Below the pieces are notes generated by a model. It did not search any database and was not told where the DNA came from. It saw only the letters and a list, made by a program, of their open reading frames with translations. From the NCBI RefSeq assembly GCF_017352135.1, contig NZ_CP071454.1:682001-746000 (forward strand): DNA of 64,000 bases, written 5' to 3'. Origin of the DNA: Rhizobium lentis. GTDB taxonomy: Bacteria > Pseudomonadota > Alphaproteobacteria > Rhizobiales > Rhizobiaceae. Position numbers and translations under genes: made by a program. This document shows positions 26,873-26,985 of this stretch, piece by piece. Each line of letters begins with the position of its first letter. The stretch's first letter is position 1.

Positions 26873-26932
26873 ATGAACACCGCGCGCACCAATTCAAAGC
26901 TCCTACTCGCCATCATTCCTATGGTGGGTTAG
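26873..26932 (+). CDS. Leucine leader peptide of the leuS attenuator
   Basis: A 19-codon frame, MNTARTNSKLLLAIIPMVG, contains three consecutive leucine codons CTC CTA CTC (26900-26908). It ends 28 bases before a rho-independent terminator that precedes a leucyl-tRNA synthetase gene. This is the layout of amino-acid attenuators: when charged leucine tRNA is short, the ribosome stalls on the Leu codons and termination is prevented. The ribosome site is weak (AAAAAAGAC). Short size makes the call depend on the downstream structures, which fit very well. Confidence 0.8.
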   Translation: MNTARTNSKLLLAIIPMVG

Positions 26933-26985
26933 CACGCGCTTGCGTTTTTAAAGATGCAGCAACCCGCCGAAGAGGCGGGTTTTTT
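26906..26985 (+). promoter_or_regulatory. Transcription attenuator (pause hairpin, antiterminator, terminator) upstream of leuS
   Basis: Four segments can be read. Segment 1 (CTCGCCAT, 26906-26913) pairs with segment 2 (ATGGTGGG, 26921-26928) with two G-U pairs. Segment 2, shifted (GGTGGGTT, 26923-26930), pairs over 8 bp, one wobble, with segment 3 (AACCCGCC, 26961-26968) as antiterminator. Segment 3 pairs perfectly with segment 4 (GGCGGGTT, 26974-26981), and the T run extends to 26985, giving the terminator. Segment 1 starts in the third Leu codon, so a ribosome stalled there would mask it and favour antitermination. Confidence 0.8.
26961..26985 (+). terminator. Attenuator terminator before leuS
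   Basis: Stem AACCCGCC / GGCGGGTT with loop GAAGA and six T at 26980-26985. It lies 49 bases before the leuS start, so it controls entry into the gene and does not end an upstream one. Confidence 0.85.

What the first reader, a model, noticed from the sequence alone, without database searches (positions are those of the whole stretch)
26873..26985. Complete leucine attenuator in front of a second leucyl-tRNA synthetase gene
Seen in sequence: a 19-residue leader frame with CTC CTA CTC (26900-26908), a pause hairpin (26906-26913 with 26921-26928), an antiterminator pairing (26923-26930 with 26961-26968, 8 bp, one wobble) and a terminator (26961-26985), 49 bases before leuS. Leader-peptide attenuation is known for amino-acid biosynthesis and some synthetase genes in proteobacteria. 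Here it would raise LeuRS when charged tRNA-Leu falls, for instance when the housekeeping LeuRS is inhibited. An inducible resistant LeuRS copy is the inferred meaning.
Basis: partly seen in the sequence, partly recalled or inferred. Interest (0 to 1): 0.75.

Follow-up and report, generated by a model that had tools for sequence, protein, structure and literature searches.

The report
Leucine-sensing switch before spare leuS
A Rhizobium carries a spare gene for attaching leucine to its tRNA behind an RNA switch that should turn on when charged leucine-tRNA runs low; the switch is conserved in relatives and resembles an isoleucine-sensing switch of other bacteria, but the gene it controls is interrupted in this strain.

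Summary
In detail: leader frame with CTC CTA CTC, pause hairpin, antiterminator and U-tailed terminator lie as described. The layout recurs before 11 of 12 auxiliary leuS copies read, in Rhizobium, on an Agrobacterium plasmid and in another family; Leu codons persist while the leader peptide changes and the pause hairpin is rebuilt. Two corrections. (1) leuS is not intact here: an in-frame TAG stands at codon 134 (27433-27435); two more attenuated copies are broken, eight are not. (2) The element is not isolated: it scores 42.4 bits (threshold 43) against Rfam RF00624, 'Pseudomonas sRNA P9'. P9 itself looks like an isoleucine attenuator: the best 30 of 47 P9 matches in one genus all precede ilvA with Ile-Ile leaders. 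The Leu codons sit where P9 relatives have Ile codons. So this is a Leu-sensing relative of P9 before a spare, horizontally spread LeuRS. Response to Leu-tRNA and resistance of that LeuRS are untested. leuS attenuators were predicted before in Streptomyces (PMC1262725), and an attenuated auxiliary TrpRS is known there (title seen).

The parts
26837..26861 (+). Candidate promoter block TGGACA-N14-TGTCA, 36 bases before the leader start
   Evidence: TGGAC[AG]-N14-TG[GT]CA found at -35/-36 in 11 of 11 attenuated copies; once in the window on both strands, this place. That it is a promoter is inference.
26873..26932 (+). Leader frame, 19 codons, MNTARTNSKLLLAIIPMVG*
   Evidence: relatives.
26900..26908 (+). 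Sensor codons CTC CTA CTC (Leu x3)
   Evidence: CTC-CTA in frame in 10 of 11 copies, the eleventh has CTT CTC; CTA is 16 of 895 Leu codons in 23 window frames that I chose.
26906..26913 (+). Arm 1 of the pause (1:2) hairpin
   Evidence: Hairpin -8.6 kcal/mol; other sequences pair at this place in relatives.
26921..26928 (+). Partner of arm 1 in the pause hairpin
26923..26930 (+). Arm 2 (GGTGGGTT), antiterminator 5' arm, reaches the first base of the leader stop
   Evidence: 8 bp with arm 3 in 10 of 11 copies, 7 in the other.
26961..26968 (+). Arm 3 (AACCCGCC), shared by antiterminator and terminator
   Evidence: Invariant in 11 of 11.
26974..26985 (+). Arm 4 (GGCGGGTT) and U run of the terminator
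   Evidence: 8 bp and T6 in 11 of 11.
26900..26983 (+). Stretch matching Rfam RF00624 (P9) end to end, 42.4 bits, gathering score 43
27034..29556 (+). Auxiliary leuS frame, interrupted
   Evidence: TIGR00396 positions 1-842 of 843, 1062 bits, 1 TAG inside; C-terminal piece 818.6 bits.
27433..27435 (+). In-frame TAG, codon 134 of leuS

Best explanation
26837-26985 is a ribosome-mediated transcription attenuator for an auxiliary, horizontally spread leucyl-tRNA synthetase gene, and is a leucine-sensing relative of the isoleucine attenuator filed in Rfam as 'sRNA P9'. With enough Leu-tRNA the ribosome reaches the leader stop and covers arm 2, arm 3 pairs with arm 4 and transcription ends. When Leu-tRNA is short the ribosome halts on CTC CTA CTC, arm 2 is free and pairs with arm 3 first, the terminator cannot form and leuS is transcribed. 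Shown by computation: the elements, their conservation, the rebuilt 1:2 hairpin and the fit of an assumed ribosome footprint. Inferred: promoter, termination and the response to Leu-tRNA. In this strain the gene is interrupted by a TAG, so the switch probably drives no full-length enzyme; intact relatives show what it was built for.
For: Elements present. Same layout in 11 of the 12 auxiliary copies of the window's LeuRS group that were read; no terminator or Leu-run leader in the 400 bases before the housekeeping leuS in the 6 of 8 copies whose start my pattern found. Leu run kept although the leader changes from MNTARTNSKLLLAIIPMVG to MNYSAAHILLLGTFA and MINSFAHARLLGTID; rare CTA kept in 10 of 11. 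A ribosome at the Leu codons leaves arm 2 free and 2:3 forms (7-8 pairs) in 11 of 11; at the stop at most 2 nt of arm 2 are free and 2:3 forms in 0 of 11. 1:2 hairpin rebuilt with other bases. Attenuated copies lie on one side of a branch. P9 match and the same sensor slot. The C-terminal piece of leuS is under purifying selection, dN/dS 0.14-0.22 among the window copy and four close relatives.
Against: leuS carries a TAG here, and 2 more of the 11 attenuated copies are broken (G010, G117). Arms 2, 3 and 4 hardly vary, so 2:3 and 3:4 have no covariation of their own, and the covariation term of the consensus fold is small (-0.45 kcal/mol; both-sided changes at 5 of 29 pairs, 3 of them in 1:2, some of these from L153, which that alignment places 3 nt off). 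The support for the attenuated group is only 68, and L152, which groups with it, lacks the element. The P9 match is just under threshold and other leuS copies score lower (41.7 and 31.2; L129 and L153 not listed at E 0.05). No expression data.
Confidence: 0.82

Rival explanations
1. The stretch is only an intrinsic terminator with a chance leader frame; no leucine response.
For: Arms 2-4 are nearly invariant and a bare terminator would also keep arms 3 and 4; covariation is weak.
Against: Arm 2, the Leu codons and a leader frame of 15-19 codons are kept across lineages whose leader peptides differ; hairpin 1:2 is rebuilt with other bases. The nearest upstream same-strand frame of at least 90 aa in the list (26175-26567) ends about 390 bases before the terminator.
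Confidence: 0.06
2. The attenuator responds mainly to isoleucine, like P9, and the Leu run is secondary.
For: P9-type loci carry Ile codons in the same slot; the window leader also has ATC ATT after the Leu run.
Against: Leaders MNYSAAHILLLGTFA, MNNVRAHSLLLLALVPMVG and MINSFAHARLLGTID keep the Leu run and have no Ile pair after it; a ribosome waiting at ATC (26912) would, with the footprint, cover 3 bases of arm 2. The controlled gene is leuS.
Confidence: 0.07
3. The TAG is an assembly or sequencing error and the strain makes a full auxiliary LeuRS.
For: Single lesion; the window branch shows 13 nonsynonymous and 26 synonymous private changes in the C-terminal piece, no sign of long decay. A search with the N-terminal piece listed no product more than 83% identical in its best 120 rows, which neither supports nor excludes this.
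Against: Two more attenuated copies carry other lesions, so loss is plausible. Only one assembly was seen.
Confidence: 0.3
4. The auxiliary LeuRS is not for resistance but for leucine starvation or some non-translational role.
For: Attenuation answers leucine starvation and synthetase inhibition alike; roles of other LeuRS duplicates are unknown (PMC9437257, passages seen); no biosynthetic cluster for an inhibitor was noticed in the flanks looked at.
Against: A second, foreign enzyme adds little when leucine itself is short; patchy, partly plasmid-borne spread is typical of resistance genes (inference).
Confidence: 0.35

Closest known systems
Rfam RF00624, 'Pseudomonas sRNA P9'
   Same: Same order of leader tail, arm 2, arm 3 and arm 4 with similar sequence; sensor codons at the same distance from arm 2.
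   Different: P9 carries Ile codons and, in the genus with the highest P9 scores, precedes ilvA (30 of 30 loci fetched); here Leu codons precede leuS; 42.4 bits against a threshold of 43.
Candidate leuS attenuators of Streptomyces avermitilis and S. coelicolor (PMC1262725, passages seen)
   Same: Leader peptide, antiterminator and terminator before leuS, with Leu codons marked.
   Different: Actinobacteria; the passages seen do not say whether that leuS is an auxiliary copy; sequences not compared here.
Auxiliary antibiotic-resistant TrpRS gene under ribosome-mediated attenuation (Vecchione and Sello 2010; seen only as the title of reference 57 of PMC4787780; Streptomyces recalled)
   Same: A second synthetase behind a leader-peptide attenuator.
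   Different: Trp, not Leu; resistance is in the title there, not shown here. The paper itself is not held.
AgnB2, TM84-resistant LeuRS of Agrobacterium K84 (PMC5059758, passages seen)
   Same: A special LeuRS in a Rhizobiaceae strain.
   Different: AgnB2 has Q in place of M in KMSKS, the window frame has KMSKS; chain 5ah5 (taken to be AgnB2, recalled) matches at 480 bits, Thermus-type 1h3n at 636; the 5' region of agnB2 could not be read.
Enterobacterial Leu leader (Rfam RF00512, number recalled)
   Same: Leu-codon leader peptide attenuation (recalled).
   Different: Not among the matches up to E = 5; controls leucine biosynthesis (recalled).

Membership tests
Ribosome-mediated transcription attenuator (trp/leu type) | Leader frame with a run of codons for the sensed amino acid | tested here: met
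   Leu run of 3-4 in 10 of 11 copies, 2 in one.
Ribosome-mediated transcription attenuator (trp/leu type) | Mutually exclusive antiterminator and intrinsic terminator | tested here: met
   Arm 3 shared; 7-8 bp and 8 bp in 11 of 11.
Ribosome-mediated transcription attenuator (trp/leu type) | Stop codon placed so that a finished ribosome hides arm 2, a stalled one does not | tested here: met
   11 of 11 with a footprint of 14 nt from the A site, which is an assumption.
Ribosome-mediated transcription attenuator (trp/leu type) | Read-through rises when the cognate charged tRNA falls | not testable with these tools
   Needs a reporter.
Rfam RF00624 (P9) | Score at or above the gathering score of 43 bits | tested here: not met
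   42.4 bits for the window; 41.7 (L012) and 31.2 (L120) for two other leuS copies; L129 and L153 not listed.
Rfam RF00624 (P9) | Ile codons in the sensor slot (feature defined here, not by Rfam) | tested here: not met
   Leu codons before leuS.
Rfam Leu_leader / T-box | Match to the family model | tested here: not met
   None at gathering score in the window, none up to E = 5 at the leader.
Auxiliary antibiotic-resistant synthetase under attenuation | Second, divergent synthetase besides the housekeeping one | tested here: met
   Two full-length leuS frames, 42% identical over the C-terminal piece.
Auxiliary antibiotic-resistant synthetase under attenuation | Intact enzyme gene | tested here: not met
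   TAG at 27433-27435 in this genome; 8 of the 11 attenuated copies show no lesion.
Auxiliary antibiotic-resistant synthetase under attenuation | Resistance to a synthetase inhibitor | not testable with these tools
   No inhibitor data.
AgnB2-type LeuRS | KQSKS in place of KMSKS | tested here: not met
   KMSKS in the window frame; the Q from PMC5059758.

The most novel reading that the evidence does not exclude
P9-type attenuators are one mobile, re-codable tRNA-charging sensor. The Ile version controls ilvA and has been placed before accessory genes (SgcJ/SnoaL-like proteins, two kinds of P-loop protein); by exchanging the codons of one slot it became the Leu version before a spare leuS. The accessory genes would then be stress genes switched on by aminoacyl-tRNA shortage, for instance under synthetase inhibitors, and the sister leuS group uses a second, translational leader switch for the same end.
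Probability: 0.33. Interest if true: 0.75.

Novelty: new variant of a known kind. Interest (0 to 1): 0.56.

Why it matters
It gives an Rfam family filed as an sRNA a testable function (isoleucine attenuation of ilvA), shows a similar RNA module with leucine codons before a spare synthetase, and offers a sequence tag for finding accessory genes that respond to loss of charged tRNA. For this strain it also corrects the picture: the switch is whole, the gene is not.

Tried and rejected
Rejected: T-box and known Leu leader (no Rfam match); membership in P9 proper (below threshold, other codons); an AgnB2-type enzyme (KMSKS kept, weaker match to 5ah5). Tried without result: the 5' region of agnB2 (accession not held); a search with the N-terminal piece of leuS, which cannot say whether the TAG occurs in other assemblies; a Leu-run scan upstream of 78 other leuS loci (L041-L118): in 7 the start was not found, and the 6 of the other 71 with an LLL frame were not inspected further. 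The leuS leader model gave matches in 20 of 394 family genomes at E 0.01: the window, the seven SgcJ loci, and 12 genomes with weaker rows (L139-L151); of these I looked at L139-L148 and took them for chance.

Literature: searches for leuS attenuation or leuS duplication gave no paper on Rhizobium in the held library (listings only, apart from the passages cited). For P9 as a leader, the rows listed (10 of 93 papers; 15 of 34) show no occurrence of 'sRNA P9' or 'RF00624'. Older attenuation surveys of proteobacteria (Vitreschak and others, 2004, recalled) were not read and may contain the ilvA case.

Script faults and dropped rows: the first script for the sensor slot mis-placed the hairpins (its tally is not used) and was replaced. 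Left out: L157, L173, L174, L175 (no leader found, or none that fits), L176 (not examined), L155 and L156 (same places as the window and L133). L177 counts there as having no codon in the slot because the script placed arm 2 wrongly. Leaders had to contain II, LL or VV, those II; for L162-L164 and L178 I took a later ATG than one search printed. L163's gene was taken as SgcJ-like from its near-identity to L162 and L164.

Full report
Setting. The window lies in a 6.42-Mb genome of 5 contigs; the nearest named relatives of its second leuS are in Rhizobium sp. L43 (93%) and R. chutanense C5 (91%). The genome has two full-length leuS frames: the window's (TIGR00396, 1062 bits) and an intact one at C1:1805861 (1010 bits). 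The two are 42% identical over the C-terminal piece.

The observation. Leader, Leu codons, hairpins and terminator are at the stated places. The unoccupied RNA folds into the pause hairpin and the terminator, z = -2.6. My scan found two terminators in the window; this one has a leader with three Leu in a row and an 8-bp antiterminator. Twenty simulated sequences of 64 kb gave 4 terminators and no such set; with so few terminators that control is weak.

The gene is interrupted. The leuS frame 27034-29556 holds a TAG at 27433-27435, codon 134. On the C-terminal piece selection is purifying (dN/dS 0.14-0.22 among the window copy and G083, G014, G019, G027), and the window branch shows 13 nonsynonymous and 26 synonymous private changes, against 7:11, 13.5:20.5, 15:42 and 13:29 on the four others. 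The stop is therefore recent or an error of the assembly. Of the 11 attenuated copies, G010 has a frameshift near residue 435 of the piece and G117 a break near residue 337 with a TGA; 8 show no lesion. Loss seems tolerated.

Distribution. In 148 genomes of the genus (the window's included) 23 carry an auxiliary leuS by my reading: 6 of the window type (89-100%), 2 at 67-69% and 15 at 62-64% (one of the 15 partial). In 394 genomes of the family the window's and one more did at E 1e-180, in 397 of the order the window's and one more. Among 84 plasmid records with any match, 5 were at 60-80% identity; I read 4 of these: R. leguminosarum TP16 pRlX5, Sinorhizobium sp. B11 p1 (same length and place as G116), A. 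tumefaciens G3/79 pAtG3_79b and R. anhuiense T24 pRA_T24_1. The patchy, partly plasmid-borne spread points to horizontal transfer.

Conservation of the switch. I read the upstream region of the window-type copies (6), TP16, G116, G117, the Agrobacterium plasmid copy, G816 (another family of the order) and G232. Eleven of these 12 have the attenuator; G232 (L152) does not. Leaders: MNTARTNSKLLLAIIPMVG and near variants, MNNVRAHSLLLLALVPMVG, MNYSAAHILLLGTFA, MNYSAAHSLLLSIFA, MINSFAHARLLGTID. CTC-CTA is kept in frame in 10 of 11, although CTA makes up 16 of 895 Leu codons in 23 window frames that I chose. Arms 2-4 hardly vary; hairpin 1:2 is rebuilt (for example CTCGCCATC/GATGGTGGG in G083 against CACCTTCG/CGAGGGTG in G116). 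RNAalifold lists both-sided changes at 5 of 29 pairs, three of them in 1:2, with a small covariation term of -0.45; L153 lies 3 nt off in that alignment. A block TGGAC[AG]-N14-TG[GT]CA stands 35-36 bases before the leader in 11 of 11 and once in the window; it may be the promoter. On the LeuRS tree, without the broken G010 and G117, the attenuated copies lie on one side of a branch (support 68; with L152 added, 99), apart from the 62-64% group (100) and the housekeeping enzymes (100).

Mechanism. With a ribosome halted on the Leu codons (footprint assumed 14 nt from the A site) arm 2 is free and the best fold contains 2:3 in 11 of 11; with a ribosome at the stop at most 2 nt of arm 2 are free and 2:3 is absent in 11 of 11. 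This is the geometry of classical attenuation. That termination occurs and that Leu-tRNA is the signal are inferences from the anatomy. In the 400 bases before the housekeeping leuS the scan found no terminator or Leu-run leader in the 6 of 8 copies whose start my pattern located.

Kinship with P9. At E-value threshold, Rfam RF00624 'Pseudomonas sRNA P9' covers 26900-26983 end to end, 42.4 bits, gathering score 43; it is the one match in the genome at E 0.001. The P9 consensus reads AUU AUU AUU ACC GCC AUU CCU GUU AUG GCG GGU UAG, a leader end IIITAIPVMAG*, beside LLLAIIPMVG* here. In one genus (handle g302, unnamed; by its P9 scores presumably Pseudomonas) 44 of 59 genomes have a match at E 0.001, 42 above the cut-off. 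I had the best 30 of the 47 matches listed: 30 of 30 have an ilvA match within 1.5 kb downstream on the same strand, in 28 beginning at residues 1-17 and 43-236 bases after P9 (L182 is cut by a contig end, L197 matched only residues 277-331 in the row printed), and in 30 of 30 a leader with Ile-Ile was found (I looked for one). NCBIfam gives the L158 and L160 proteins as threonine ammonia-lyase. In that genus P9 is most simply an isoleucine attenuator of ilvA.

P9 elsewhere. In 259 genomes of the phylum 21 had a match, 11 genomes above the cut-off. Of 21 loci that I looked at 3 precede ilvA (2 of them in g302), 6 an SgcJ/SnoaL-like gene, 9 a P-loop gene, and 3 looked like chance; assignments by sequence reading, with Pfam/NCBIfam support for L132, L158, L160, L162, L165, L166, L167, L169 and L171, some below the curated cut-offs. 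Conversely a sequence model of the leuS leaders found, in 394 genomes of the family, seven loci of other genera with E from 2e-9 to 6e-5: attenuators with Ile leaders before an SgcJ/SnoaL-like gene, three of which pass the P9 threshold (50.9, 46.8, 46.8). So P9 relatives are not tied to ilvA.

The slot. In 35 loci (11 leuS, 24 others) the codons ending 13-23 nt before arm 2 were read. At least two Leu and no Ile: 10 of 11 leuS, 0 of 24 others. At least one Ile: 23 of 24 others (the 24th, L177, was mis-measured; its leader has Ile-Ile), 1 of 11 leuS (which also has two Leu). In the seven leuS leaders closest to the window CTC and CTA end 20 and 17 nt before arm 2; in 13 of 24 others ATT and ATT end at exactly these distances. 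Loci were found by similarity and leaders picked with II, LL or VV, so the common position is partly built in; the change of codon with the gene is less so. I read this as one module whose sensor was re-coded, with common descent likely but not proved.

Sister group. The 62-64% copies lack this attenuator. In 14 of the 16 such copies that I had (L019 and L027 were not aligned) there is instead a leader frame of 39-45 codons ending at the same TAG, a Leu codon (CTT) starting 9 nt before an invariant hairpin in 14 of 14, and a pairing of GCUCCUG with the Shine-Dalgarno region CAGGAG of leuS in 14 of 14 unoccupied folds, 6-7 pairs. With a ribosome at the last Leu codon that pairing is gone in 12 of 14 (it stays in L015 and L022; in L022 and L024 the last Leu codon is a later one than CTT). 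Against this reading: the alternative pairing that I expected to replace it (2:4) appeared with more than 2 pairs in only 1 of 14. It may be a translational switch; this is a lead, not a result.

What is known. Candidate leuS attenuators were predicted in two Streptomyces (PMC1262725, passages). An attenuated, antibiotic-resistant auxiliary TrpRS is the title of reference 57 of PMC4787780 (reference list only). AgnB2 is a TM84-resistant LeuRS with Q in its KMSKS motif (PMC5059758, passages); the window frame has KMSKS. A survey of premature terminators reports histidine leader peptides before hisS paralogues (PMC2965389, passages). So the kind is known; a leucine version before an auxiliary proteobacterial leuS and its tie to P9 were not found in the searches named in Tried and rejected.

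Verdict. Observation confirmed; interpretation partly supported (gene interrupted, resistance untested); new variant of a known kind, with P9 and its accessory genes as the most useful lead.

Noticed in passing
L158, L159, L160 and L179-L207 (P9 hits): Rfam RF00624, filed as an sRNA, precedes ilvA with Ile-Ile leaders in 30 of 30 loci examined in one genus (best 30 of 47 matches): it looks like an isoleucine attenuator.
   Followed up: yes
L132-L138, L161-L173, L177, L178: P9-like attenuators, nearly all with Ile-rich leaders, also precede accessory genes: SgcJ/SnoaL-like proteins and two kinds of P-loop proteins (AAA_33 type; 'DNA topology modulation' type, below cut-off) (no leader found for L173). 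Why isoleucine shortage should switch these on is unknown.
   Followed up: partly
L015-L018, L020-L026, L028, L030, L130, upstream of leuS: Sister auxiliary leuS copies carry a different conserved 5' element: leader frame of 39-45 codons, a Leu codon at a fixed place, invariant hairpin and an anti-Shine-Dalgarno pairing, perhaps a translational attenuator.
   Followed up: partly
L029/L125 (G010) and L031/L119 (G117): Two further attenuated leuS copies are broken by frameshift or stop.
   Followed up: partly
window 16026-17352: tRNA-Arg(CCG) beside an IS481-like transposase gene (222.6 bits, cut-off 224); in G019 and G027 the leuS copy lies within about 1 kb of DNA matching the tRNA-Arg stretch, so the region may be an integration spot.
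   Followed up: partly
window 26175-26567: 130-aa frame without Pfam or NCBIfam match at E 0.001; similar DNA (about 83%) lies on the other side of leuS in G083 and G010.
   Followed up: partly
L152 (G232): An auxiliary leuS 66% identical to the window's without the attenuator, though it groups with attenuated copies on the tree.
   Followed up: no
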